From IMG/VR virus record IMGVR_UViG_3300042691_039283, positions 1-20,544 of that record: a stretch of 20,544 nt of DNA; one strand, written 5' to 3'. This DNA is from a virus. The notes beneath the pieces are model-generated. The model searched no databases and had not been told where the DNA came from. It worked only from the letters and a program-made list of their open reading frames with translations. Below, piece by piece: positions 1,327 to 20,544 of this stretch. The position numbers and the translations under genes are program-made. How positions within the stretch are numbered: the first letter of the stretch is position 1; the number at the start of each line of letters is the position of its first letter.

Positions 1327-2922
1327 CTATTGTGAAGATCTACCCTCGCCTTTTGGATTTCTTCCACTAATTGTGGCAGATCCGTCAGACTGATTGTTAG
1401 TTCTTTCTCCGTCCCTCGCCCTATCTGCTTCATTATTTTGCATTTCTGGCTTAGGCTGGAATGGCTCATCCCCTCCTTCCCTTTGTGGAAGACCGAGTAT
1501 AGACCTGGCTTCGTTAGGAAGCATAACTTGAGTCTTTACGTATCTTTCTAAAATTTGAGATTGTGCTATTTCGTCTGTAAGAGTTAGTTCATTAAACTTT
1601 AAAACAAGAATGTCAGTCTTTTCTTTAACAATCTTATTTAATGTTTTTTCTAGTTCTCTTTGTGCTGGTCTAGCAACCTGTTCTTTAAATGTGCGATCTT
1701 GAGCAAGTGCTGCTGCTATAGACCCAGAATCCCCTCCACCAATTTTAGATAGTGGCACTTGGTGCGCTACTAAAATATCATCACGATTTTGATTACGATA
1801 TCTTTCAAAAGAACCTTCTTGAACACCGTTCTCGATAGGCTGCATTGTGAACTCTACTTTATTAGTATCGCTGTCTCCAGGAAGTGGTATGTATAGTGTT
1901 CTATGAGATTGTCCTTTCAAACTTGTCTGAAGGAATCTAAACATCTTATCTTCTGCTTCTGCAGAAAGTCTGGCACCCTTTAGTGTCACAACATAACGAG
2001 GGACAGCCTTATTACTAAAGTAGTCGATGTTATATTGTGACGCTAACTGGTCTCCATGGAGCGAGTTTATTGCCGACATGATATCAGGTACACCATAAAA
2101 AGTATTTAAAGGCGAATACTGTTTAAAGTGTATGATTTCGTTAGGTCTTGGATCTGAAGTAACGGGATTAGCGTTCTTCGCACCAAAATTTCTAAAGTAA
2201 ACAACCTTCTGTCCTATAATCTGAACAAAGCCATCACGTAATCTACGAACACGCATTGTTGTTGCTGGTATGTGTCCGATATATCCTATTTCGCCACGAA
2301 TAGTTCTACCGACTTCTAGGTATCCATTACCTACAGCCTGTACATCTGTATAAACTTTCATCATTGTTGTTGTAAAAGAATCATCGTCATTTAGTGATTC
2401 TAACCAACCATGCATTTCGATCTTTGCTCTTTCAATTCTATTTCTTGCTCTTGCTACCTGCTCTTTATCTTGATTTGATTCAAGTCTAAGCATTGTTGCT
2501 GGAGAAACTTCAAAATCATATCCCAAACCCACAATGTTTTCTACTTTTGCATCAATGGCAGCATGGTTAGCAAATGATGTATCGTAATAATTTGCAAGTT
2601 CATAAACATTCCATGGTGGTGTAATTACATCAAATAATCCATAGCCATTTCTATATACCGTGCCAGGATTAATCTCTTTTGACTTTGCTCCATCAATACC
2701 TGACTGCTCTGCTCTTGCACTATCAAGATAACCTTGTGTTGGATTATTTCTATCTGCTTTTTCTACAAGCCGTGTAGTTCTTCTTCTAAAATTATTATCC
2801 AAACCATTGTAGGACTTTAGTTCAGACCATGCCTTATTAAATGGATCATCTGCTTTGAATTGATCTAATGGATTAACTAAATCGTCAACCCTTGCACCTA
2901 AAATATATTCATTTTCTTCCAT
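1327..2922 (-). CDS. Phage portal protein (HK97/PBSX type)
   Basis: This 531-residue protein matches the PF04860-type portal family in length and motifs. Portals form the dodecameric ring at one capsid vertex through which DNA is packaged and to which the tail joins. Visible features include PPWNVYELANYYDTS near the N-terminal third, HIPATTMRVRR, the family-typical EIIHFKQYSPLNTFYGVPDI, and QVPLSKIGGGDSGSI near the C-terminal third. The C-terminal 50 residues are polar, low-complexity and probably disordered. The ATG overlaps the stop of the upstream small gene (TAATG), indicating translational coupling. The protease/scaffold gene follows after a 66-nt gap with its own promoter. Confidence 0.93.
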   Translation of the reverse strand: MEENEYILGARVDDLVNPLDQFKADDPFNKAWSELKSYNGLDNNFRRRTTRLVEKADRNNPTQGYLDSARAEQSGIDGAKSKEINPGTVYRNGYGLFDVITPPWNVYELANYYDTSFANHAAIDAKVENIVGLGYDFEVSPATMLRLESNQDKEQVARARNRIERAKIEMHGWLESLNDDDSFTTTMMKVYTDVQAVGNGYLEVGRTIRGEIGYIGHIPATTMRVRRLRDGFVQIIGQKVVYFRNFGAKNANPVTSDPRPNEIIHFKQYSPLNTFYGVPDIMSAINSLHGDQLASQYNIDYFSNKAVPRYVVTLKGARLSAEAEDKMFRFLQTSLKGQSHRTLYIPLPGDSDTNKVEFTMQPIENGVQEGSFERYRNQNRDDILVAHQVPLSKIGGGDSGSIAAALAQDRTFKEQVARPAQRELEKTLNKIVKEKTDILVLKFNELTLTDEIAQSQILERYVKTQVMLPNEARSILGLPQREGGDEPFQPKPEMQNNEADRARDGERTNNQSDGSATISGRNPKGEGRSSQ

Positions 2923-3308: not shown

Positions 3309-6300
3309 TTATACTGCGTCAGATATTTGTGATTGCCAAGATATGTCTTTAAATATGGAATACTCGTACCCCTCTATACTAAAAACACGAGTATCATCAA
3401 TAATTATTTTATTTGTTCCAGTATAAGCCTTGTATAGATCTGCTGGGTTGACACCATAAAAACTTAAAGAAGATTGAACTAAAACACCTTGCCACAAATA
3501 ATAGTCGTTCCAATACTCCCAATCAAAAATACCATCGGAAGAAAATTTAACCCTTGCCCAGGGCCTCTGTGTTACAGTCTGTATTTCTTGAAGACTGGTT
3601 GTTTGATAATATGACAAACTATTAAATATAATTGGTCCATTTATCATAATAGATCCAGAATAGGACTTGAAATCTAAAATAGAAGGAAATCCTATCCCTA
3701 TCATAGCCCATTCATTAGTGTTTATGATTGGTTCTTTAACAACTTGTCCATTTAAATAAAATACAATACCATCATAAAGTGCGCCAGTGTTACCGTCTAT
3801 TGCGTATATCTTTGCTCTTTTGCCTGTAGGATGATTTGCTATCATGTAGAACTTAATTATTTTATTTTTTGCATTTATTTGCATTATTTTTGTTGGAGCA
3901 TATGGGAAAAAATCTTCATTAAACCTAATTAAGGATTGTAAAGCCATTATCTCATAATTTGGTGTTTTGTTATTATTAACAGGAATTGCTACTCCACGAT
4001 TAATTAGTGGATCGTAGTTTCCTTTTATTTCTAGCCCAGAATGTCTTGTTAAATATAAATAAGGAGATGATCCTTTATATATTGTAAAAGGGTTTTTTGC
4101 TTTGTAATTATAATAATACCCGCTATTCAAATAGGGATAAACATTTGTTCCAAATCTTGTTCCTACATTATTTGCTGTATTATAATTAAATGCCTGTGAG
4201 GCTAATTGTAAGTTTTTAATTTTTATTGGTTTGTGTTTAATTCCGTTTATGTTAAATTCTAAATGAATTACAATTGCAATATCATTAAAATCAACACCTT
4301 TTGGCGGATAAATAACTACATTATCTACAACCTCATACTTTGTATTTATCCAACTGTCTCCAGGTGTAATAACACCATTTTTTGGAACATCTTCTGTGTT
4401 TATAAAAAATCCATTATTTGCATTTGCTCCAGTTGATAAATATTCAAAAGTAATATATGTTTTTAAAATTGAACTTGATGTATCATAAGAATATGTTTTT
4501 ATTGCTTTTTCAGCCAAATCTTGATAATCTACATATCCAGTATATAAATAATTATCCAGTGCCTCGTATGTTCTTTGTACTGGATATGAATATTCTAATG
4601 ATAATTCTGAATATGGCCAGCCGTTTTCATCTATAATCTGAGTTTCTTTAAATTTTGTAGGCGCTGGATAATTTATATTAAATTGTATAAAGTCTAAACC
4701 AAATTTTTCATCTCCATATTCATCAGTTATGTATTTTCCAAAGTAAGATAACGGAATATAGTCTTTCCATGATCCATTTACATCCACATCTAAATAAAAA
4801 CTATCAAAATAATTTTTTGGTGTTATCCCACAACTTGGATTATGATCCAATAATTCTACAGTTATAAAAGATGTTGGAGAAAATAACTCTGGATTTGAAC
4901 CTAGATAATAATTCCAAAATGCTTGATCTGCCTCGCCTCCATCATACTGAATTCCAGAGCCATAGGTATTAAATATATTTTCATAATCTTTTGGCACACC
5001 TAACAAATTAAACAAATTTTCAATGTCTTTTACATTTTTTTCTGAACATATTGCTATTTTATATATATTACCAGTAAATGTTTTTTCAAAATTTTTAGTG
5101 CCACCCACATACATTGATAGATTTGCATTTGTAAAAAATGCAGTTATGTTATCTCCAAAATAATCCCTAAATACATCTATTTCAACACCAACTGCGAATA
5201 TGTCTTCGTTTGAAACTGAAAGCGACTCATAGATAGTTAGCGGTAACTCTTCTCCATATTTTAATATATATCTAACATCATTTCCTACACATTCTATTGA
5301 AAAATAATTTGATAACTGATCTTCTAATCTTATTAAAACTCCTGTTCCAGAATATGTAGAGGGTTTTTTAAATAAGCCATAAAATGCGTGTGGCCTTTCT
5401 CCATTTAAAGAAAAATTATTAAAATATAAATATGAGTTAATATTTTCCCAGTTTTCAGAAGGTTTTAAATTTAAAAACATTAATTCTTCATTTTGAATTA
5501 CTGAGCAATCTATCAATAAATCGGCTTCTGATTTTGTATTATTGTCTATAAATATTTGTGGTGTAGAAAAATTTGGAGCAACTAAAGAATTATCTTCAAC
5601 AATGATGTTATCTAATGATGCCTGAGACCATGACCCTAGGTCTGGATAATTATAATTTTTTGCATAATCGGCAAATGAGTAATCAAATACGACAGAACTC
5701 CCTCCATAGGATGCATTTAAATTTTCTGGATATTCTACGCCTTGCCCATAAACAAATCTTCTTTTAGCAACTAATGATGGTACTAGGTATGGATAAATTG
5801 CTATACAGTCTAATTCTATAGGCTGAATATCTGAATATGCATAAAAACCTATCCAATCCTGATCTTTGTTATATTGATTTAGTTTATTTGGCAAAGACAA
5901 TGATTCGCTGTTTAAGGTTAAAGAAATTACCTCTTCTCCATTTAATAAAATTGTTGAAAGATTTGTAGAATATTTCCAATCAATCAGCATTGGCCTTTCC
6001 CATTGACCAATATAATATGAAGCATAACTATTATTTATTCTTAATACTAAAAATGATCCGTCTAAATAAATTCCATCTGTTGATGAAATAGGGCCTACAA
6101 TTCGTTTTGATGTAATAGACGAGTTGTTTGTACGTAACCAAAATTCTAAAGTAAACTCTTTATATCTTCCTCCATCTGATAAAATTTCATTTGAAGGAAT
6201 TATTAAACTAGGGCTATTATTATTATCATATAACTTAGTTACATTTTGTGATCCAAAAACCATAGGAATACCGAAATTTTTAGCAACTAATGAATTATTA

Positions 6301-7010
6301 TTAGTAAAATAATACCCAAAGTTTTCAGATAATCCGTATGCTGATGCCTGAATGACTTTTGATGAATTTAATGCTATCTCAGATGGAAGTGTTATTGGAC
6401 TAACACCCAAGGAACTTGACTGAAACTCTTCTGCCCATTGTCCTATTGTTATACCATTAATATAAAAAAGATAGTCTGCTAATTCTTGTGATCCTGTAAG
6501 ATAATTAATTTTTATAATTATTCTTATTGAAGAGTTTTCAAACTCTGGGCCAAAAGTTTCTGAAAGAAAATACCATTTATCTTTTAAAGATGCATCATAC
6601 GACTTAAGAATATCAACGTATGACTCTAACGCATCATCATAATATCTATAACCAATTTCAATACCTAAAGCATATGGACTTGTTGTATAAAAATAAGAAC
6701 CGACGGAAAACGTTTTAAGTGTTTGATTTAATTCATTTATATTAAATAGTTCTGGGCTTACCAAAGTAACAGAGAATGTTTCTGGCAATATGGCATTTGG
6801 AGAAATTTTATTAATAATACTATCTGGAAATGGCGCATCCAATAATTCCTCGGTCCCTAGAGAAGATCCATTATCAATAAACCATGCGGACGTATTTCTA
6901 TTATTTTCAGATATTAATGATACATAATCGGCTTTATCGTCTAATGCCCATAAAAACTTAGGGTGCTCAGAATATATTTTTTCTGCGTATAAATTTGAAG
7001 GATTAGACAT
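3309..7010 (-). CDS. Large LamG-domain minor tail protein
   Basis: This is the largest gene here (1233 residues). The N-terminus (NLYAEKIYSEHPKFLWALDD, residues 6-25) resembles the opening of minor tail proteins I know from actinobacteriophages. Residues about 282-410 form a LamG/concanavalin-like lectin domain (EFTLEFWLRTNN, then LSTILLNGEEV and DCIAIYPYLVP). A second lectin-like region around residues 530-680 is suggested by composition. The protein is rich in Asn, Tyr, Ser and Ile, with beta-rich repeats throughout, and has no membrane segments. It probably sits at the tail tip and binds surface glycans. No Shine-Dalgarno site is seen; a TGATAAAAT element ends 9 nt before the ATG. It is unusual in lying directly before the portal block rather than after a tape-measure gene. 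The tail role is likely; the exact position in the virion is inferred. Confidence 0.8.
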   Translation of the reverse strand: MSNPSNLYAEKIYSEHPKFLWALDDKADYVSLISENNRNTSAWFIDNGSSLGTEELLDAPFPDSIINKISPNAILPETFSVTLVSPELFNINELNQTLKTFSVGSYFYTTSPYALGIEIGYRYYDDALESYVDILKSYDASLKDKWYFLSETFGPEFENSSIRIIIKINYLTGSQELADYLFYINGITIGQWAEEFQSSSLGVSPITLPSEIALNSSKVIQASAYGLSENFGYYFTNNNSLVAKNFGIPMVFGSQNVTKLYDNNNSPSLIIPSNEILSDGGRYKEFTLEFWLRTNNSSITSKRIVGPISSTDGIYLDGSFLVLRINNSYASYYIGQWERPMLIDWKYSTNLSTILLNGEEVISLTLNSESLSLPNKLNQYNKDQDWIGFYAYSDIQPIELDCIAIYPYLVPSLVAKRRFVYGQGVEYPENLNASYGGSSVVFDYSFADYAKNYNYPDLGSWSQASLDNIIVEDNSLVAPNFSTPQIFIDNNTKSEADLLIDCSVIQNEELMFLNLKPSENWENINSYLYFNNFSLNGERPHAFYGLFKKPSTYSGTGVLIRLEDQLSNYFSIECVGNDVRYILKYGEELPLTIYESLSVSNEDIFAVGVEIDVFRDYFGDNITAFFTNANLSMYVGGTKNFEKTFTGNIYKIAICSEKNVKDIENLFNLLGVPKDYENIFNTYGSGIQYDGGEADQAFWNYYLGSNPELFSPTSFITVELLDHNPSCGITPKNYFDSFYLDVDVNGSWKDYIPLSYFGKYITDEYGDEKFGLDFIQFNINYPAPTKFKETQIIDENGWPYSELSLEYSYPVQRTYEALDNYLYTGYVDYQDLAEKAIKTYSYDTSSSILKTYITFEYLSTGANANNGFFINTEDVPKNGVITPGDSWINTKYEVVDNVVIYPPKGVDFNDIAIVIHLEFNINGIKHKPIKIKNLQLASQAFNYNTANNVGTRFGTNVYPYLNSGYYYNYKAKNPFTIYKGSSPYLYLTRHSGLEIKGNYDPLINRGVAIPVNNNKTPNYEIMALQSLIRFNEDFFPYAPTKIMQINAKNKIIKFYMIANHPTGKRAKIYAIDGNTGALYDGIVFYLNGQVVKEPIINTNEWAMIGIGFPSILDFKSYSGSIMINGPIIFNSLSYYQTTSLQEIQTVTQRPWARVKFSSDGIFDWEYWNDYYLWQGVLVQSSLSFYGVNPADLYKAYTGTNKIIIDDTRVFSIEGYEYSIFKDISWQSQISDAV

Positions 7011-7014
7011 TATG

Positions 7015-7028
7015 AGTATATTTTATCA
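7015..7028 (-). promoter_or_regulatory. Promoter for the LamG tail gene
   Basis: The minus strand reads TATGATAAAATATACT. TGATAAAAT (7020-7028) is an extended -10 ending 9 nt before the ATG at 7010. An alternative TATACT (7015-7020) has a TTTACA -35 at 17 nt spacing but ends only 4 nt before the ATG. Either gives little or no leader. Confidence 0.5.
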
Positions 7029-7547
7029 TACGATGCGTGTAAACCACCTTGGCATTGTATATCTATACCCATTGGATATTGATTTTACCCCATGTACAAA
7101 ATCTGGATTATCTGGAAAACATATTAAGTCTCCTGGCTCTGGTTTATGTGATATGTCATAACTAGGAAAATATATTTCTCCTCCATCATAATCATTATTT
7201 AAATATATTAATGTCGCTATATCGTTTGGCCTACTACTATCAAAATGTTCATGCATACCCCATCCTGGCTCAAACTTTGCTATATGAGTTTTAGTTTCAT
7301 AAAAATCTTGGAATGGTCCATCATAATTGTTTTTTACAAATTCGTATACATTTTTTGCATAAGTTTGCATTATTTCTAATATTTGTTGATTATTTTTTTG
7401 AATTTCATGATATGTATGAACAGTAAATTCTTTTTCTCCATTGCCATACTCTAAAAATTCTGTAGTATATTGTTTTGCATAATCAGATAAAAGGTTGGCA
7501 ACCTCTCTAGGCATAAATTCTTTTATATACTTTATTTTATTTATCAT
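7026..7547 (-). CDS. 2-oxoglutarate/Fe(II) oxygenase, prolyl-4-hydroxylase-like
   Basis: This 173-residue protein is about the size of a stand-alone P4H-type dioxygenase domain. The iron triad is visible as His101-x-Asp103 (MHEHFDSS) and distal His152 (DFVHGVK), and Arg162 in GYRYTMPRWF is placed to bind 2-oxoglutarate. TLIYLNNDYDGGEIYFP and PGDLICFPD are typical core strands. Such enzymes hydroxylate prolines or other side chains, or small molecules; the substrate is unknown. The ATG overlaps the stop of nrdJ (ATGA), so the two are co-translated. The nearby proline-rich tail repeats are possible substrates, but that is only a hypothesis. Confidence 0.88.
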   Translation of the reverse strand: MINKIKYIKEFMPREVANLLSDYAKQYTTEFLEYGNGEKEFTVHTYHEIQKNNQQILEIMQTYAKNVYEFVKNNYDGPFQDFYETKTHIAKFEPGWGMHEHFDSSRPNDIATLIYLNNDYDGGEIYFPSYDISHKPEPGDLICFPDNPDFVHGVKSISNGYRYTMPRWFTRIV

Positions 7548-9577
7548 GATTTAACCTTTATTTCACAAACATCTGTAGTACAGTACATCTCTCCTTGTGC
7601 CTCTAAATTTTCTGCTCCATCATAGATTGCAGACCAGTCAATTTTTTTAATTTGACCAATATAACTATTATACTCTTTTTCTGTAATTTCAGTATATGGT
7701 TGTTGTGGATATACTTTATTTCCCATCGGCAAGAACGAAACTGCTTTTAGTTGTCCCTCGTACATGTGAAGCGCAGGCGCAATATGCTTTGTTTCAGTTT
7801 CTTTGTCAAATGAAAGCGTTACAGACACGCCGTTATCAGACCAATATTTCTGAGCAGTAGCAGCAAGCGCAATCTTTTCAAACAAGGTAACATCCTTTTC
7901 AGATCTTGAATGTCCAGAGTGAACTGGGAAATATACGACAGTTGTATTCGCAGATACAAGGTCAGCCTCCATCTTATATCCAGCAGCCTTGAACAAATGA
8001 ATCATTGGGTCAGTATTCCCAAAACGAATTGCTCTCAAGAAATAGTTTCCACCTGGTGCCCAGTGAACTCCAGGCGTTGCGCCAGAAAGAATTGATACAG
8101 ACCCTGATGGTTTAACAGTTGTGACTCTAATGGAATCACGAACGCATAACCATTCAGAATATGAATGATCATATTTACGAATAGTCTCATAGCCTTCGTC
8201 CATCCATTCACGCACAACAGGCAAACCAAATTTGTCTGAGAATGATGCTATACCTGTAAGGGATGTTCCGATACGACGATTACGCTGCATAATTCCATTT
8301 GTCTGTTGCCAGTGTGTAGGTATTAGCGTTACCGTCTTACCATAAAGATATGCAAACTTTAATGTCCGCAAAAAATCTTCTTTTGTTTCATGGCGATTTA
8401 AATGTACCTCGACCAAAGTACATAGTTCGTATGATTCCAATGGCTGTTCAGCACAAGGATTAAAACCCATGACTCTATAATCTTTACCGTCAGCAGGATC
8501 TTTTAATCGCCCGTAATTTCTAGCAACATCTAGCCATATAAAGCCAGGCTCTCCGTTATTAGCGATTAGATCTACATAGTCTTCGTACTTTGTACCTACC
8601 GTCGCAGAAACAGAGTTATTTGACATCCAAGCCCAGCCTGGATTTTCTGGATCAAATGAATTTCTTTCTGGAAAAACCTCAGAATTCTTAAGATTCATAA
8701 AGTCTTGATCTTTAGCATCTCCCAAAGCCAAGGTAGCAGATCGTCTAACATTTCCTGATACTACACAGGTGCCAATAAGATTTACTATATCTACTATTGC
8801 TCTTGAGTCAAGGGTTTCTCCTGCTCTACCGCCGATTACAGACCTTATCTGCTTGTGCAACTGTATAAGTGGTGCGGGACCGCTTGCAGTGCCTCCAAAA
8901 CCCTTAATAGGGGCACCTAAAGGCCTAATAAGGTCATAGTTAAACTCCTGGATATACATATTAGGCTTTAGGTATGAGTTAATAAGTAATCTAACAGACT
9001 CTACCCAACCTTCACGAGTATCTGGTATTTCATATACTTGTGGTGGTTCTGTAGGGTCATAAATAGGTAGATTTTTTTCCCCGCCCAAAGTGTCGAAGCC
9101 TACGCCTACGCCCATCATAAGTGCATCCATTACCCAACCAAATAGTTGTCCTGGATCGTTGCGATCTATGTCTTTTGTAGAAACCATAGCGCAGTTTTGT
9201 AAAGCAGCAGAGTTTTTCTTTTCCATTGTCAGTGCAGTTCCAAAAGACCATAAACCTCGTCCAGGTGGTGTCCACTTCAAATTAAATAAACGATCAAACG
9301 CTTCTTTAGCAGATGACTGTGCTTTATAATCGTTCCAGGGTAATCTGTTTTCTTTAGCATGATTCTTTTGCGCTGAATACATACCCTCGATTACACGACG
9401 ACAAACCTCGTACCATCTTTCCTTAGTCCCATCGTCTTTCATGCGGGAGTAGGTACGAATAAATGTAATCTCTCCTAATGAATTTCCACCTGCATCTGTA
9501 AAACCAAATGGCGGTTCCTTTGTTTTATACTCATTTATAAACTCTTCAGACAAACGAAAACTAAAAAAATCAGACAT
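7544..9577 (-). CDS. nrdJ: Adenosylcobalamin-dependent ribonucleoside-triphosphate reductase (class II)
   Basis: This 677-residue protein is a monomeric class II ribonucleotide reductase, which reduces NTPs to dNTPs using a vitamin-B12 cofactor. Diagnostic residues are all present: Cys129 (AALQNCAMVST) and Cys386 (SYELCTLVEV) as the substrate-reducing pair, and Asn373, Cys375 and Glu377 in FNPCAEQP, where Cys375 is the thiyl radical site. The C-terminal redox pair Cys666/Cys671 (CTTDVC) has the CxxxxC spacing of the Lactobacillus leichmannii enzyme. VKPSGSVSILSGATPGVHW is the usual phosphate-binding loop region. Length is only slightly below the family norm, and nothing looks broken. Shine-Dalgarno AGGAGA lies 7 nt before the ATG, and an extended -10 at 9611-9619 may drive it. 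The host must supply cobalamin. It is unusual to find it between tail genes. Confidence 0.96.
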   Translation of the reverse strand: MSDFFSFRLSEEFINEYKTKEPPFGFTDAGGNSLGEITFIRTYSRMKDDGTKERWYEVCRRVIEGMYSAQKNHAKENRLPWNDYKAQSSAKEAFDRLFNLKWTPPGRGLWSFGTALTMEKKNSAALQNCAMVSTKDIDRNDPGQLFGWVMDALMMGVGVGFDTLGGEKNLPIYDPTEPPQVYEIPDTREGWVESVRLLINSYLKPNMYIQEFNYDLIRPLGAPIKGFGGTASGPAPLIQLHKQIRSVIGGRAGETLDSRAIVDIVNLIGTCVVSGNVRRSATLALGDAKDQDFMNLKNSEVFPERNSFDPENPGWAWMSNNSVSATVGTKYEDYVDLIANNGEPGFIWLDVARNYGRLKDPADGKDYRVMGFNPCAEQPLESYELCTLVEVHLNRHETKEDFLRTLKFAYLYGKTVTLIPTHWQQTNGIMQRNRRIGTSLTGIASFSDKFGLPVVREWMDEGYETIRKYDHSYSEWLCVRDSIRVTTVKPSGSVSILSGATPGVHWAPGGNYFLRAIRFGNTDPMIHLFKAAGYKMEADLVSANTTVVYFPVHSGHSRSEKDVTLFEKIALAATAQKYWSDNGVSVTLSFDKETETKHIAPALHMYEGQLKAVSFLPMGNKVYPQQPYTEITEKEYNSYIGQIKKIDWSAIYDGAENLEAQGEMYCTTDVCEIKVKS

Positions 9578-9610
9578 GTATTTCTCCTAATTGAAAACTG
9601 TAATTACTAA

Positions 9611-9619
9611 AGTATACCA
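9611..9619 (-). promoter_or_regulatory. Extended -10 promoter for nrdJ
   Basis: The minus strand reads CTCTGGTATACT, an extended -10 (TGG-TATACT) with no good -35. The leader would be about 25 nt and carry the AGGAGA ribosome site. A hairpin lies immediately upstream. Confidence 0.5.
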
Positions 9620-9643
9620 GAGTTTTTCTTTTTATAAAACTCT
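9619..9643 (-). other. Hairpin between the small Cys gene and nrdJ
   Basis: An 8-bp perfect stem AGAGTTTT/AAAACTCT with a 9-nt A-rich loop. On the minus strand no U-tract follows, so it is not a classical terminator. It abuts the nrdJ -10 element and could be a weak terminator for the upstream operon or an operator. Confidence 0.35.
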
Positions 9644-9665
9644 AATGTTGTTATTTAAGGTTATA

Positions 9666-9800
9666 TTAATTGAACTGCATTTTAGACGAATGAATATTTG
9701 GAAAACATTTATTACAAATTGATAAAGTTATTCCAGTAAATGGACAAGTTTGACTTTCTATTTTATGCCTTTTAATTAAACATAAAAATTTCTTAATCAT
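9666..9800 (-). CDS. Small Cys-rich protein, possible zinc finger (44 aa)
   Basis: A short frame starts at the ATG at 9800, overlapping the stop of the upstream oxygenase-like gene (ATGA), and ends in TAA at 9666. The 44-residue product starts MIKKFLCLIKRH and has four cysteines at 7, 19, 29 and 32 (TCPFTG and CNKC) that could bind one zinc ion. The overlap and the Cys spacing argue that it is real, since spurious frames rarely show both. The downstream 88 nt to nrdJ hold only the hairpin and promoter. I do not recognise a function. Confidence 0.6.
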   Translation of the reverse strand: MIKKFLCLIKRHKIESQTCPFTGITLSICNKCFPNIHSSKMQFN

Positions 9801-10429
9801 GCTAATGGTATCCAATGTTGCTCTAGGTCTTCTTTCATAACATTTAACGGTGATATATCATAGGCAATAGTAATTCTTGGCCTATCATACTCCCAGGGAC
9901 CTATACCATGCGGATGACCTGTTTCAGAAATAATTGCTTTATTATTTTTATTTATATTCTCAAAAGGAGTTCCTTCGTGTCCTCCTATTTTATAATAAGT
10001 AGACGATGGCTCTGCATCAACACAATAATATCCGTGAAAGTTAGGAATTCCCGTGCCACCTAAATGATCGTGGTAGTGTGTATTTTTTTCAAGTTCTGGA
10101 TTTTTTATTGCATTTGTATTAAACCATCCTTGAACCATATACTTTTGGTCTTTAAAATTAATATTATAGTAATCGCATGCTTCAATAATCATTTCTCTTA
10201 ATGCGTAATAAAGATTATAAATTGATTCATTATGAAATTGAAATATATTATACTTATTCCCTAAATCGTGTATTGCCCTTGCAGATTGTGCAGTTTGATA
10301 ATCTATATTTGGAATATTTCCATTAAGAATTTTATCATTAACTTCTAATAAGTATTTTTTTAAATCATCTAAATTATTATCTAAAGTTCTTATAAAAAAT
10401 TTATGATTTGGTTTAGAAAGTGATGTCAT
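9797..10429 (-). CDS. 2OG/Fe(II) oxygenase-like protein, tandem copy B
   Basis: This 210-residue protein is a paralogue of the gene just upstream. Shared blocks are YMVQGWFN (97-104), a HDH motif (His120-Asp121-His122), FHGYYCVDAEPSSTYY (131-146), GHPH (His172/His174), RPRITIAYD (183-191, Arg185) and the terminal EQHWIPL. The order WFN, HxH/HD, GYYxV, distal His and RIT matches the double-stranded beta-helix 2OG/Fe(II) superfamily, with His, Asp/His and His as iron ligands and Arg for 2-oxoglutarate. The N-terminal 90 residues diverge between copies. The ATG overlaps the stop of copy A (ATGA). The substrate is unknown. A structural, non-catalytic role is possible because HDH blurs the usual HxD motif. 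Confidence 0.75.
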   Translation of the reverse strand: MTSLSKPNHKFFIRTLDNNLDDLKKYLLEVNDKILNGNIPNIDYQTAQSARAIHDLGNKYNIFQFHNESIYNLYYALREMIIEACDYYNINFKDQKYMVQGWFNTNAIKNPELEKNTHYHDHLGGTGIPNFHGYYCVDAEPSSTYYKIGGHEGTPFENINKNNKAIISETGHPHGIGPWEYDRPRITIAYDISPLNVMKEDLEQHWIPLA

Positions 10430-11085
10430 AATAATGGAATCCAGTGCTGTTCTTGGTGCATTCCGTTTTGAATTAAACCTTCTAATGGGATAACATCATA
10501 AGCAACCGTAATTCTTGGACCTTCCCAATCCCAGTCAGCCTGTGCATGTGGATGTCCCATTTCAGACAAAATTGCTCTATTGTTTATGTTATTATTTACA
10601 ACCTCTTTATCAAAAACTTTGTAGTATGTTATTGATGGTTCTGCATTTACACAATAATATCCGTGAAAATGTGGTGCGCCCCATGGACCATGGTCATGCC
10701 AGTCTAGTTTTCCCTTTTTGGTGTAGTTAATATTAAACCAACCTTGCACCATATATTGTTGTTTATCAAAATCAATACCATAATATGCACATGCTTCTTT
10801 TGTCATATCAGAAACAGATCTAAATAGATTATGTATTCCAGGTATATGAAATTGAAATACATTATATTCTCGCCATTTCATTGTAGAAACACTATTAGAC
10901 TGTTTCCATATTTCATCATCTTTTAATTCACTAACACCTAGAACTTGTGCATTTTGTATTTTTAAATATCTATCGTCTAATTCTTTTCCTAGATAATTTA
11001 AATCATTATTTAAAAATCTTTCAAAAAATTTATGAGGTTGTGTAGATTTACTAACACTTTTAACTTCTAAAGGATAATTATACAT
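10426..11085 (-). CDS. 2OG/Fe(II) oxygenase-like protein, tandem copy A
   Basis: This 219-residue protein carries the same blocks as the following gene: YMVQGWFNIN (111-120), WHDHG (His130, Asp131, His132), PHFHGYYCVNAEPS (138-151), MGHPH (His178, His180), PRITVAYDV (Arg191) and EQHWIPL. It probably has the 2OG/Fe(II) dioxygenase fold. The two copies keep their cores and differ most in the N-terminal third and around residues 160-170, which suggests old duplication with separate partners or substrates. A weak ribosome site AGGA lies 6 nt before the ATG. A promoter with an inverted repeat sits 22 nt upstream, so this gene heads a three-gene operon (A, B, small Cys protein). Confidence 0.75.
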   Translation of the reverse strand: MYNYPLEVKSVSKSTQPHKFFERFLNNDLNYLGKELDDRYLKIQNAQVLGVSELKDDEIWKQSNSVSTMKWREYNVFQFHIPGIHNLFRSVSDMTKEACAYYGIDFDKQQYMVQGWFNINYTKKGKLDWHDHGPWGAPHFHGYYCVNAEPSITYYKVFDKEVVNNNINNRAILSEMGHPHAQADWDWEGPRITVAYDVIPLEGLIQNGMHQEQHWIPLL

Positions 11086-11123: not shown

Positions 11124-11312
11124 TTATGCTGGATTAGAAAAATTTGATCCATCCCAAAGATAGCCTGGGACAACTGTTGGATTATCTGTTATTTCTACAA
11201 TAGTTGGATTAGAGGCAAAGCCAGCCAATTCTGCTTCAACCTGTTGATTAATATGTTCATACATTAATACATTGCTAACTATTCCATCAACTATAAATGC
11301 TACTTTTTTCAT
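11124..11312 (-). CDS. Small tail-associated protein with WDGS motif, copy 2
   Basis: This 62-residue protein starts MKKVAFIVDG and ends GYLWDGSNFSNPA. It is a clear paralogue of the 67-residue protein at 20085-20288: both share FAFI/AFIVDG, an NPTIV block followed by D-N, and a C-terminal WDGSxF. The ending is common on small phage tail and tail-fibre-associated proteins. A strong Shine-Dalgarno site (AAAGGAG) precedes the ATG. It follows the fibronectin-repeat gene by 29 nt, as its paralogue follows the same type of gene, which suggests that each small protein serves its own large partner. Its function, perhaps folding or capping of the partner, is inferred. Confidence 0.75.
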   Translation of the reverse strand: MKKVAFIVDGIVSNVLMYEHINQQVEAELAGFASNPTIVEITDNPTVVPGYLWDGSNFSNPA

Positions 11313-11341: not shown

Positions 11342-12565
11342 TTAAATGTGACATCCATCTTGAACGCAGCCATAATATCCGCAGCAACATGGTGTACATC
11401 CTGTAGGACTAAACCCGAATACAGTAAATGATGGTGGGGTTGGTGAGAACCCAAACACTGAGAACGGTGGAGTTGGTGAGAAACCAAACACGTTAAAGGG
11501 TGAGAACCCAAAGACTGAGAACGGTGGGGTTGGTGAGAACCCGAATACGTTAAAGGGTGAGAATCCAAAGACTGAGAACGGTGGGGTTGGTGAGAACCCG
11601 AACACCGAAAATGGTGGAGTTGGAGAAAACCCGAACACAGAAAATGGTGTGAAAGCAAATGTTGTTACGCTTGAAGATGCTGACGATGTACCAGACGATC
11701 CGTTAGCGTTATCGGCTCTAACAGTATAAGTTTGTGCTGTTCCTTGTTCTTGACCAACTGTAACAGATGTAGATGTTGTGTTTCCACTTTTACCATCTGA
11801 TGAAGACCAAAAATAATTTGTAATTGCCTTACCGCCATTTGCTGGTGCAGACCAGGAAACGCTATCGCTTGCAGAGTTTGCAACGGTAGATGCTGATGGA
11901 GCACTTGGAGTTGCTGGAACTGTAGTTGCTGTAACAGATGAAGATGCTGAAGAATATACAGAGTTTCCGTTAGCATTAGTAGCCCTAACCTGGAAAGTAT
12001 AAGATGTTGCAGATGTTAATCCAGTAACTGTATGTGGGGATGATGCTCCTGTTGCTGTATGTGATCCGCTTGATAATGTAGTATATCCTGTAATTGTTTT
12101 ACCACCAGTAGCATTTGCAGAAAAATTAACAGTAACAGCGCCATCATTAAATGCCCTATTTGTTCCTACGTCGGCCACTGACGAGATTGATGGTGCTTGT
12201 GGAACAGTTGTAGATGTTACAGAAGATGATGTTGTTCCAGCAGATGAACCAACTTGATTAGTTGCTATAATTGTAAAAGTATATGCTGTATTTGATGCTA
12301 ATCCTTCAAAAGTAGTACTTGTTCCCGATACCGTCTTTGAATAAGTTGAAGGAGTAGTAGTAATAGTATAAGATGATGCCTCAGCAGATCCAGCAGGTAG
12401 GGACCAAGCCAAACTTACTGCTCCGCCAACTCCAGATGCTGCTGCTTCTGTTGATACTGCTGATGCTGCATATGGACGATTAGTTCCAACATCTGTTGCC
12501 GTAGTAATTGTTACATTTTCAGGCCATGTTTGATGCCCTGCTTTTCTACCAATTTTACCTGCCAT
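11342..12565 (-). CDS. Fibronectin-III repeat protein with FSVFGFSPTPP repeats and Cys-rich C-terminus
   Basis: This 407-residue protein has three parts. Residues about 22-303 form three fibronectin type III-like domains; the first two each start with an AT/AD-DVGTNR motif, and all contain the Y-x-F/V-x-V/I-x-A-x-N strand. Residues 308-387 are eight copies of xVFGFSP, mostly separated by TPP. The last 19 residues hold six cysteines in a GCTPCCCGYYGCVQDGCHI tail. Such Fn3 proteins decorate virions or form fibres that bind carbohydrate surfaces. The repeat and Cys tail recur in the partial gene at 20348-20544. Shine-Dalgarno AAAGGAG precedes the ATG. Nothing shows enzyme activity. What the repeat does is unknown to me. 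Confidence 0.82.
   Translation of the reverse strand: MAGKIGRKAGHQTWPENVTITTATDVGTNRPYAASAVSTEAAASGVGGAVSLAWSLPAGSAEASSYTITTTPSTYSKTVSGTSTTFEGLASNTAYTFTIIATNQVGSSAGTTSSSVTSTTVPQAPSISSVADVGTNRAFNDGAVTVNFSANATGGKTITGYTTLSSGSHTATGASSPHTVTGLTSATSYTFQVRATNANGNSVYSSASSSVTATTVPATPSAPSASTVANSASDSVSWSAPANGGKAITNYFWSSSDGKSGNTTSTSVTVGQEQGTAQTYTVRADNANGSSGTSSASSSVTTFAFTPFSVFGFSPTPPFSVFGFSPTPPFSVFGFSPFNVFGFSPTPPFSVFGFSPFNVFGFSPTPPFSVFGFSPTPPSFTVFGFSPTGCTPCCCGYYGCVQDGCHI
11405..11644 (-). repeat. Coding repeat array (VFGFSP units)
   Basis: Eight units of 24 or 33 nt encode FSVFGFSP, FNVFGFSP and FTVFGFSP, most followed by TPP. Copies are very similar at DNA level with alternating 33 and 24-nt periods, a pattern expected from slippage or unequal crossover. 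It lies wholly inside the Fn3 protein gene. Confidence 0.9.
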
Positions 12566-17594: not shown

Positions 17595-17603
17595 ATTATA
17601 CCA
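17595..17603 (-). promoter_or_regulatory. Extended -10 promoter, leaderless start
   Basis: The minus strand reads TTATGGTATAAT, then CCTATT and the ATG at 17588. With the usual 6-7 nt from -10 to start site, transcription would begin at the A of the ATG. The element overlaps the stop codon of the SGNH gene. Confidence 0.55.
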
Positions 17604-18579
17604 TAAATGAATAATAAAATTCTGCCCAGTGAGTCTGTCTATGTACGCCAAAATGAGGAACATATCTTCTTGGTGGCTCTCCACCTCTAGCGCCAGTTTT
17701 CTTTATCCATTCATAAAGATCTCCCTCGTCATATGCAACATTAAATCTTCTATGGCCATATTTTATAAATAAATCTTCATGACATTTTTCATTTTCCCAA
17801 TTCTTCATATCAAAGTCTAAATATGATTCTGCTACATCTGGTCCGTAATGGTAGCATTTAAATAAATCTGCAGTTGGATCTTTTTTATAAAATTTAAATT
17901 TATTAAAACAGTAATCATCAAAACTATCAAATCCATCACTCTTTAAATCAAAAGTATTATGAGTCCAAGTGCTCCAAATTAATTTTATATTATTACTTTC
18001 ACAAAAAATTTCTAACATTTTTATATATTCAAAATTTATATAGTAAACCCATTCTGAAGCAATAATGCTTGTCCAATCAAAAGGGAATTTAGCAGAAGTT
18101 TTTGGTAATCTATGAAAATTAGTTGACAGATCCTGCATACCATCCTGAAAAGAACTTATAAACCAAAATCTATCTATAAATGGGAAATTTGCAAATACAT
18201 ATTTAGGATAAAAATTATATTTATTAATAATAGAAAAAAATGCAGATATTGATTTCATAATAGACCCGCCGTTATATCCTATATTCCCTACTTTATAATT
18301 TTGACCATTTTCTTTAATTATTTTTTCTAAAATATTTGACCACCTATCTTCTTCTGGTAGTCCCATTCCGTATGTCATTGAACACCCTAAAGTTAATACT
18401 TCTGGTTTTTCAGAAAACTCAATAGATCTTAATCCATCTGAATTAAGTTTATAATCATAGATGCCGCTTGGCTCTAAAAAAGAATTTGTTAAGCCTCCAG
18501 GCTCTACAAAATTTTTTGGAATACTATATTTATCAAATAAATAAAAATCGTTTTTTAAATTGTTTTCTAGTAGAGCCAT
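17596..18579 (-). CDS. SGNH/GDSL-type hydrolase, probable tail-associated esterase
   Basis: This 327-residue protein has block I of the SGNH family at residues 64-73 (LGCSMTYGMG), with Ser67 as likely nucleophile. A NIGYNGGS segment at 99-106 may supply the oxyanion glycine, and the C-terminus HFGVHRQTHWAEF supplies a likely catalytic His309. The Asp normally three residues before that His is replaced by Tyr306, and a Pro/Arg-rich insertion (GGEPPRRYVP) precedes it, so the triad may be altered. SGNH enzymes remove acetyl or acyl groups from sugars and lipids. Among fibre genes such a protein often de-acetylates host surface glycans. No signal peptide. The start has no ribosome site, only an AT-rich leader. 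Confidence 0.78.
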   Translation of the reverse strand: MALLENNLKNDFYLFDKYSIPKNFVEPGGLTNSFLEPSGIYDYKLNSDGLRSIEFSEKPEVLTLGCSMTYGMGLPEEDRWSNILEKIIKENGQNYKVGNIGYNGGSIMKSISAFFSIINKYNFYPKYVFANFPFIDRFWFISSFQDGMQDLSTNFHRLPKTSAKFPFDWTSIIASEWVYYINFEYIKMLEIFCESNNIKLIWSTWTHNTFDLKSDGFDSFDDYCFNKFKFYKKDPTADLFKCYHYGPDVAESYLDFDMKNWENEKCHEDLFIKYGHRRFNVAYDEGDLYEWIKKTGARGGEPPRRYVPHFGVHRQTHWAEFYYSFMV

Positions 18580-19839: not shown

Positions 19840-20082
19840 TTACCATTTATTAAGTGGACAGGTTGCCTTTTGAAGTTCAACTTTTAATTTCATTAGGCAA
19901 CCGCACTTTTTACATTGCTTAGTTAGTTTTATTAATTCTGGACATTGCTTACAAATATTAAATCTTTCTGCAGCAAGTTCTGGTGTTGCTTTTTCTACTT
20001 CTGGCTTTAATAAATCCCAAGGCCTGGTTTCACCTAAATTTTCTTTATATCTTTGCCAAGCACTTTTGTTGTTTTCAGACAC
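19840..20082 (-). CDS. Small Cys-rich zinc-ribbon-like phage protein (80 aa)
   Basis: It starts with GTG at 20082, two bases after the stop of the 67-residue gene, so it is coupled. Six cysteines (44, 47, 57, 60, 62 and 75) lie in CKQCPEL, QCKKCGCLMKLK and ATCPLNKW, a pattern seen in small proteins of aquatic phages near tail and oxygenase genes. The C-terminal half probably binds zinc. The N-terminal half is charged and helical (WQRYKENLGETRPWD). It may recruit nucleic acid or protein; its role is unknown. The stop directly abuts the stop of the plus-strand lytic gene, with no terminator in between. Confidence 0.75.
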   Translation of the reverse strand: MSENNKSAWQRYKENLGETRPWDLLKPEVEKATPELAAERFNICKQCPELIKLTKQCKKCGCLMKLKVELQKATCPLNKW

Positions 20083-20084
20083 TA

Positions 20085-20288
20085 CTATGGCTTTCTAAAG
20101 GTAGACCCGTCCCAAATATCTCCCTTTTCAATAGTATCTACTAGATTATCTGGAACAACAACAATTGTTGGATTTGATCTAAATGTTTGATGTAAGACTG
20201 GGGTAGCAGGTGATTCATTTTCATACTGTGCCCATGTTTTAAAAACTTCTCCATCTGCTATAAAAGCAAATCTTTTTATAACGCTCAT
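20085..20288 (-). CDS. Small tail-associated protein with WDGS motif, copy 1
   Basis: This 67-residue protein begins MSVIKRFAFIADGEVF and ends GDIWDGSTFRKP. Its paralogue is at 11124-11312, with matching FAFIxDGxV, NPTIVxxxDN and WDGSxF blocks. A strong Shine-Dalgarno site (AGGAGG) precedes the ATG. Like its paralogue, it directly follows a protein with VFGFSP repeats and a Cys-rich tail, so the pair travels as a module. A role as partner or folding helper of that large protein is inferred from this conserved pairing. Confidence 0.75.
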   Translation of the reverse strand: MSVIKRFAFIADGEVFKTWAQYENESPATPVLHQTFRSNPTIVVVPDNLVDTIEKGDIWDGSTFRKP

Positions 20289-20347: not shown

Positions 20348-20544
20348 TTAATAATGACAGCCTCCACAAGACTGTCCAGATGTACCATATTCTCCATAAT
20401 AAGGATATTCACATGGAGAACAATTAGATGTTGGTGGAGTTGGTGAAAAACCAAAGACTGAGAAGGCTTCAGGTGGAGTTGGTGAGAAACCAAAGACTGA
20501 GAAGGCTTCAGGTGGCGTTGGTGAGAAACCAAAGACTGAGAAGG
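20348..20544 (-). CDS. C-terminus of second VFGFSP-repeat protein with Cys-rich tail (partial)
   Basis: Only the last 64 residues are in the window; the 5' part lies beyond 20544. They are two units of FSVFGFSPTPPEA, one FSVFGFSPTPP, then a 27-residue tail with four cysteines (NCSPCEYPYYG and SCGGCHY) and TAA at 20348. This is the same arrangement as the end of the Fn3 protein at 11342-12565: repeats, two C-rich clusters, YYG and a CH-x end. The missing N-terminal part probably holds similar Fn3 domains, by analogy. A paralogous WDGS small gene follows, as at the other locus. Confidence 0.8.
   Translation of the reverse strand, partial: FSVFGFSPTPPEAFSVFGFSPTPPEAFSVFGFSPTPPTSNCSPCEYPYYGEYGTSGQSCGGCHY
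20432..20542 (-). repeat. Coding repeat array (FSVFGFSPTPPEA units)
   Basis: Two 39-nt units and one 33-nt unit are nearly identical in DNA. They closely resemble the repeats at 11405-11644 in the same orientation, about 9 kb away. The array continues beyond the window edge. Confidence 0.9.

What the first reader, a model, noticed from the sequence alone, without database searches (positions are those of the whole stretch)
7026..11085. Three 2OG/Fe(II) oxygenase-like genes beside proline-rich tail proteins
A P4H-like enzyme with clear HxD...H...R and two tandem HDH paralogues lie within 4 kb, next to a protein with repeated SPTPP prolines. A possible system is hydroxylation of fibre prolines or other residues by phage enzymes, to stiffen or disguise fibres. 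Alternatives are modification of DNA, of a surface sugar, or of a host metabolite.
Basis: inference. Interest (0 to 1): 0.7.

Follow-up and report, generated by a model that had tools for sequence, protein, structure and literature searches.

The report
Phage tail-protein oxygenase module
A phage of water-dwelling actinobacteria carries three oxygen-using enzymes beside a sticky, repeat-rich tail protein; related phages keep this pairing and often add sugar-attaching enzymes of a family that can act on hydroxylated proteins, which suggests that these phages chemically decorate their own tail tips.

Summary
The P4H-like gene is a PF13640 enzyme (HxD..H..R). The two "HDH" genes are tandem paralogues (49% identical) with a confidently predicted 2OG-oxygenase fold, but their metal motif is HxH, not HxD, in all 59 relatives aligned. 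They lie just downstream of a fn3 tail protein with five SPTPP copies inside a Phe-rich F-x-F-x-P array. In related viral contigs (whiB in 13 of 16 long records, so actinophages) the order repeat protein - HDH(1-3) - [RNR] - P4H - LamG-like protein - portal is conserved, and all full HDH copies sit at one locus. Proline is the less constant residue of the array (1-22%; Phe 31-46%), so "proline hydroxylation by HDH" is not established. The strongest support is new: in relatives a GT60-type (PF11397) glycosyltransferase overlaps the HDH genes, and a second repeat protein with long (PT)n or (PVAPT)n runs is followed by an oxygenase and PF11397. Eukaryotic members of that family add GlcNAc to hydroxyproline or to threonine. 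Best reading: a tail-adhesin modification module, in relatives hydroxylation plus O-glycosylation. Substrate and activity are inferred. No PF11397 gene was seen in the window. Rivals: modification of a glycan, or ordinary auxiliary metabolism.

The parts
10426..11085 (-). HDH1 (HDH-A): slow-evolving, near-universal copy; 2OG-oxygenase fold, metal motif H130-D-H132, H180, R191
9797..10429 (-). HDH2 (HDH-B): variable second copy, ATGA overlap with HDH1
7026..7547 (-). P4H-like Fe(II)/2OG oxygenase (PF13640), H101-x-D103...H152...R162; ATGA overlap with RNR; 15 bp before the 1233-aa structural gene
11342..12565 (-). Repeat-bearing tail protein (FIB): fn3 domains, F-x-F-x-P array with 5 SPTPP, Cys-rich C-terminus CTPCCCGYYGCVQDGCHI
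11124..11312 (-). Small protein (62 aa) between FIB and HDH1, resembling by eye the ORF 20085-20288
   Evidence: no family match
7544..9577 (-). Class II (B12-dependent) ribonucleotide reductase lying between HDH2 and P4H; absent in several relatives that keep the rest
3309..7010 (-). 1233-aa structural protein (BIG), conserved neighbour of P4H; the LamG-like label is inferred by eye only
1327..2922 (-). Portal protein (PF04860), anchors the module among structural genes
20348..20542 (-). C-terminus of a second repeat protein, cut by the window end: (FSVFGFSPTPPEA)n and Cys-rich tail
19840..20082 (-). DUF6171 (PF19668) Cys-rich 80-aa protein downstream of the second repeat protein; a related region is fused to a PF11397 glycosyltransferase in relative L262

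Best explanation
The three genes are the oxygenase part of a tail-adhesin modification module of aquatic actinophages. HDH1 and HDH2 (an HxH variant of the Fe(II)/2OG oxygenase fold) and the P4H-like enzyme are probably co-expressed with the structural operon and most likely hydroxylate residues of the repeat-bearing tail proteins made next to them, the F-x-F-x-P array protein first of all. In several related phages the hydroxyls are probably then capped by a GT60-type glycosyltransferase encoded next door, in others possibly by a sulfotransferase. Shown: genes, predicted folds, active-site conservation, conserved gene order, adjacency of PF11397 enzymes in relatives. Inferred: that the enzymes are active, that the tail repeats are their substrate, which residue is modified, and the benefit (probably an altered adhesive surface).
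For: Conserved order FIB-HDH(1-3)-[RNR]-P4H-BIG-G124-portal, with HDH in 48 and P4H in 41 of 50 non-redundant loci that show both FIB and BIG. All 24 full HDH copies in 12 long records lie in one cluster per record, the FIB locus where read. The array was found independently by pattern and again points to HDH. H130, H132, H141, H180, R191 invariant in 59 of 59. Predicted fold matches PHD2 and P4H peptide hydroxylases among others. A PF11397-like GT overlaps or abuts an HDH gene directly upstream in 29 of 37 GT hits. At the second repeat locus: Pro/Thr repeats - oxygenase - PF11397 (E 4e-22 to 3e-39). Asp/Asn hydroxylase PF05118 and a sulfotransferase (phrog_3347) lie between FIB and HDH in near kin. 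The array's 3-mer type tracks HDH-A sequence (r 0.59-0.74) better than the fn3 part of the same protein does. Precedents: mimivirus L230 hydroxylates virion collagen-like proteins (PMC9614988); GT60 Gnt1 acts on Skp1 hydroxyproline made by PhyA (PMC6939170).
Against: No biochemical data. No PF11397 gene was seen in the window's 20.5 kb. Pro is not the constant residue of the array. Both arrays and HDH are core genes of one phage group, so co-occurrence is partly common descent: partial correlations are modest and the unrelated neighbour RNR scores 0.42 in the same test. HDH sequence does not co-vary with the fn3 part of FIB beyond the backbone. Two loci with FIB and BIG have no HDH (L178, L207), and L071/L077 (19-kb fragments) have HDH-A without a visible array. 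GT60 enzymes can also act on mucin-type Ser/Thr without hydroxylation (PMC8724618). The HxH site could make HDH an inactive or differently acting protein.
Confidence: 0.5

Rival explanations
1. The oxygenases act on a glycan: they tailor sugars attached to the phage tail or to the host surface, as part of a carbohydrate-modification island that sits beside the fibres.
For: In related loci the same island holds a galactose-3-O-sulfotransferase-like gene, a Nol-like carbamoyltransferase and PF11397 glycosyltransferases. L071/L077 have HDH-A in such an island without a visible array.
Against: In the window no sugar enzyme adjoins the oxygenases. HDH stays next to the array protein when the sugar enzymes are absent. 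An Asp/Asn hydroxylase-like gene is among the neighbours.
Confidence: 0.22
2. Ordinary auxiliary metabolism: phage 2OG oxygenases that consume 2OG or modify a host metabolite or host protein, placed in the operon for expression timing, with no link to the fibres.
For: Cyanophage 2OG oxygenases have been proposed to modulate 2OG/nitrogen status or DNA repair (PMC3037559). These phages carry 1-6 PF13640 genes per record. A metabolic gene, RNR, sits in the same operon. HDH divergence follows the backbone genes.
Against: HDH copies form one cluster per record, and the oxygenases are the most constant genes between FIB and BIG apart from RNR. A second repeat locus in relatives also has adjacent oxygenases in 9 of 28 cases.
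Confidence: 0.2
3. HDH proteins are no longer oxygenases: the HxH site binds metal or ligand but does not turn over 2OG, and they act as chaperones or assembly partners of the array protein. Clearly degenerate paralogues exist beside some FIB genes.
For: HxH instead of HxD/E. Degenerate 150-190-aa relatives that lack the motif but, in most cases, keep the C-terminal QKWIPL tail lie near FIB.
Against: H130, H132, H141, H180 and R191 are invariant across 59 diverse proteins, whereas the truly degenerate paralogues lose them; this is the pattern of an active site under selection.
Confidence: 0.13

Closest known systems
Mimivirus L230 lysyl hydroxylase-glucosyltransferase (PMC9614988, PMC5802723)
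   Same: A virus-encoded 2OG oxygenase, paired with a glycosyltransferase activity, that modifies repeats of the virus's own structural proteins; hydroxylysine confirmed in virions.
   Different: Collagen Gly-X-Y repeats and Lys target in a giant virus of amoebae; enzyme fused to its GT. Here separate genes in a tailed phage, Phe/Pro-rich arrays with almost no Lys, HxH motif in two of three enzymes, activity untested.
Skp1 pathway PhyA/Gnt1 (GT60) of Dictyostelium and Toxoplasma (PMC6939170)
   Same: A prolyl hydroxylase followed by a GT60 (PF11397) enzyme. In phage relatives PF11397 genes adjoin oxygenases and Pro/Thr-repeat proteins.
   Different: No GT60 gene seen in the window. Substrate unknown. 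Other GT60 enzymes initiate mucin-type GlcNAc on Ser/Thr-rich domains (PMC8724618), so the GT does not prove hydroxyproline.
Cyanophage and pelagiphage 2OG-Fe(II) oxygenase auxiliary genes (PMC3037559, PMC9599517)
   Same: Several small 2OG oxygenases per phage genome, function open; a remote HDH relative (27% identity, HKH motif) occurs in Synechococcus phage ACG-2014b.
   Different: There the genes were discussed as metabolic or ferrochelatase-linked; here they are fixed beside a repeat-bearing tail protein.
PDB 3bvc / 2rg4, uncharacterised 2OG-like proteins of roseobacters
   Same: Nearest solved folds to HDH1 (TM about 0.6).
   Different: 13% identity; no known function; metal site not compared residue by residue.

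Membership tests
Fe(II)/2OG oxygenase superfamily (P4H-like gene 7026-7547) | HxD...H metal triad and distal Arg/Lys for 2OG in a PF13640 domain | tested here: met
   PF13640 over cut-off; H101, D103, H152 invariant and R162 nearly so in 43 relatives
Fe(II)/2OG oxygenase superfamily (HDH1, HDH2) | Double-stranded beta-helix fold | tested here: met
   AF2 pLDDT 93.4 for HDH1, Foldseek to PHD2, P4H, 3bvc
Fe(II)/2OG oxygenase superfamily (HDH1, HDH2) | 2-His-1-carboxylate triad HxD/E...H | tested here: not met
   H-[D/E]-H in 59 of 59, HKH in a remote relative; alignment to HxD rests on strand spacing, hhalign gave only a weak match. An HxG reading (H132, G/P134) is not excluded
Fe(II)/2OG oxygenase superfamily (HDH1, HDH2) | Distal His and 2OG-binding Arg | tested here: met
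   H180 and R191 invariant in 59 of 59; their roles are inferred from position
Fe(II)/2OG oxygenase superfamily (all three) | 2OG-dependent hydroxylation activity | not testable with these tools
   needs an enzyme assay
Prolyl 4-hydroxylase (functional class) | Hydroxyproline formed on a peptide | not testable with these tools
   fold similarity to P4H/PHD2 only
GT60 (PF11397), relatives only | PF11397 match over the curated cut-off | tested here: met
   L262, L263, L264, L243, L221, L064, L068 over cut-off; DSH visible in L262 and L264
GT60 (PF11397), window | PF11397 gene in the 20.5-kb window | tested here: inconclusive
   None among the window ORFs scanned against Pfam, but not all window ORFs were scanned and the window is a fragment
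Hint/intein-like C-terminal domain, relatives of FIB | Hint fold, Cys1 and C-terminal HN | tested here: met
   Fold hits inteins, BIL and hedgehog; Cys1 and HN in many, not all; self-processing not testable here
Hint/intein-like C-terminal domain, window FIB | Hint domain after the array | tested here: not met
   20-residue Cys-rich tail instead

The most novel reading that the evidence does not exclude
Aquatic actinophages run their own two-step protein decoration: an unusual three-histidine (HxH) branch of the 2OG oxygenase fold, together with P4H-type enzymes, hydroxylates tail-adhesin repeats (Pro or even Phe), and GT60-type transferases then O-glycosylate them, on adhesins of which many also carry a self-processing Hint domain at the C-terminus. 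This would be a phage counterpart of hydroxylation-dependent glycosylation.
Probability: 0.28. Interest if true: 0.85.

Novelty: new variant of a known kind. Interest (0 to 1): 0.64.

Why it matters
What the many 2OG oxygenases of aquatic phages do is an open question, usually answered with host metabolism. A conserved pairing with repeat-bearing tail proteins, and with PF11397 glycosyltransferases in relatives, turns it into a direct test on two or three proteins in E. coli. If true, it shows that phages chemically mature their tail adhesins, and it offers a compact hydroxylase set with a possible new metal site.

Tried and rejected
Cellular relatives of HDH: none in genome contigs. Close HDH relatives in isolate phages: only ACG-2014b at 27%. 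PHROG name 'DNA endonuclease' for the P4H gene (phrog_2297): rejected, since PF13640 and the HxD..H..R residues fit an oxygenase. Co-inheritance of HDH with FIB as a swapping cassette: not supported. Array-HDH covariation as proof of substrate: rejected as proof, because RNR and BIG also score. Proline as the invariant target: rejected for the F-array. Pfam membership of HDH: no convincing match even at E<=1. Literature on hydroxylated phage tails or Hint-tailed fibres: none found in the held library.

Full report
What is there. The window is a 20,544-base virus record from IMG/VR. On the minus strand, portal, a 124-aa protein, a 1233-aa protein (LamG-like by eye), the P4H-like gene, a class II RNR, HDH2, HDH1, a 62-aa protein, the repeat protein FIB and further tail-fibre genes follow one another. 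The P4H gene is a PF13640 enzyme with all expected residues. HDH1 and HDH2 are 49% identical and match no curated family, but a 59-sequence alignment gave a confident AlphaFold2 model of HDH1 (pLDDT 93.4) whose solved neighbours are 2OG oxygenases: 3bvc, 2rg4, HIF prolyl hydroxylases, P4H; among viral models, cyanophage 2OG-like proteins and one 46%-identical uncharacterised phage protein.

An unusual metal motif. Across the 59 proteins, H130, H132, H141, H180 and R191 never vary; position 131 is D (50) or E (9). Counting from the end of the preceding strand, H130 takes the place of the HxD histidine and H132 that of the aspartate (strand ends at 121 in the HDH1 model; hhalign aligned only that N-terminal part and weakly). 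So HDH looks like a three-His variant. A remote relative in Synechococcus phage ACG-2014b reads HKH, so the acid at 131 is not essential. An HxG reading with H132 first is a less likely alternative that the tools here cannot exclude.

Conserved neighbourhood. From scans with HDH, with P4H and with array DNA patterns about 250 loci were read. The order FIB-HDH-[RNR]-P4H-BIG-G124-portal recurs with or without RNR. Among 50 non-redundant loci showing both FIB and BIG, 48 have HDH and 41 P4H. HDH follows the array in 64 non-redundant cases, directly in 40, with a typical gap of 40-60 bp. In 12 records of 66-124 kb all 24 full copies form one cluster per record. Of 22 further records chosen because the array at hand had no HDH beside it, all 11 longer than 49 kb have HDH elsewhere. 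These are related phages, so the counts are not independent. HDH-A forms one well-supported group (SH-aLRT 100, 26 sequences: 25 first copies and 1 second copy) and evolves slowly; HDH-B copies are diverse and number 0-2. whiB in 13 of 16 long records marks actinobacterial hosts (whiB as marker: PMC6802176, PMC10202952).

What the array says about the target. The arrays are 38% Phe, 14% Gly, 14% Pro, 12% Ser, 8% Val, 8% Thr and almost free of charged residues. Phe varies little (31-46%); Pro ranges from 1 to 22%, and several three-HDH phages have 6-9%. If HDH acts on the array, Pro may be one target but Phe, Val, Ser or Thr must be considered; Lys, Asn and Asp are practically excluded there. 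Array type co-varies with HDH-A more than with most genes, but RNR and BIG also score, so this is only suggestive.

Glycosyltransferases next door in relatives. In one branch (FGFTP arrays) a 250-290-aa gene overlaps or abuts the HDH stop and usually precedes a P4H gene; 29 of 37 hits have HDH directly upstream. Two of six tested are over the PF11397 cut-off and two below it. At a second locus, beside the endolysin, a further repeat protein ends in the same array or in a Hint domain. In several relatives it carries long (PT)n or (PVAPT)n runs and is followed by a 2OG-type oxygenase (PF13532 weak, HxD visible) and a strong PF11397 gene: L264 (E 4e-22), L263 (2e-33); in L243 by DUF6171, a P4H-like gene and PF11397 (1e-38); in L262 by a DUF6171-PF11397 fusion (3e-39). 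PF11397 adjoins 3 of 6 PT-rich and 1 of 22 other second-locus proteins (Fisher p=0.02; L264, missed by the rule, would add one to the first group). The window's own second locus, cut by the window end, has the array, a small protein and the DUF6171 gene but no visible PF11397. Eukaryotic GT60 enzymes act on hydroxyproline of Skp1 (PMC6939170) or on mucin-like Ser/Thr domains (PMC8724618), so this supports, but does not prove, hydroxylation as the first step.

Verdict. Activity, substrate and benefit remain inferred.

Noticed in passing
L003 8218-8718 and about 50 other FIB relatives (A3): Directly after the Phe-rich array many relatives carry a Hint/intein-like domain (Cys1 ... HN plus a few residues); fold confirmed against inteins, BIL and hedgehog. 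A possible self-processing or ligating tail protein; absent in the window.
   Followed up: partly
L079 7239-7802, L076, L138, L180, L011 4649-5110: Degenerate HDH paralogues beside FIB that lack the HxH site; most keep the C-terminal QKWIPL tail.
   Followed up: partly
L065 3746-4489, L079, L071, L067: A 230-260-aa family with 'PEP...IPEWYK' and 'GTPxxQVIPFKRE' (phrog_7084, unknown) recurs between FIB and HDH; the second motif recalls dUTPase-like folds, untested.
   Followed up: no
L002 8741-9430, L008 9238-9954: Sulfotransferase-like gene (phrog_3347) directly after FIB in the window's close kin; missing in the window.
   Followed up: partly
window 17596-18579: 327-aa protein with GCSMTYG, resembling SGNH/GDSL esterases by eye, among tail-fibre genes; relatives recur in the enzyme islands.
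   Followed up: no
window 7544-9577: Class II RNR inserted within a structural operon, absent in sister phages that keep the flanking genes.
   Followed up: no
L243 9728-11542: Second repeat protein with a (DP)n run next to the F-array.
   Followed up: no
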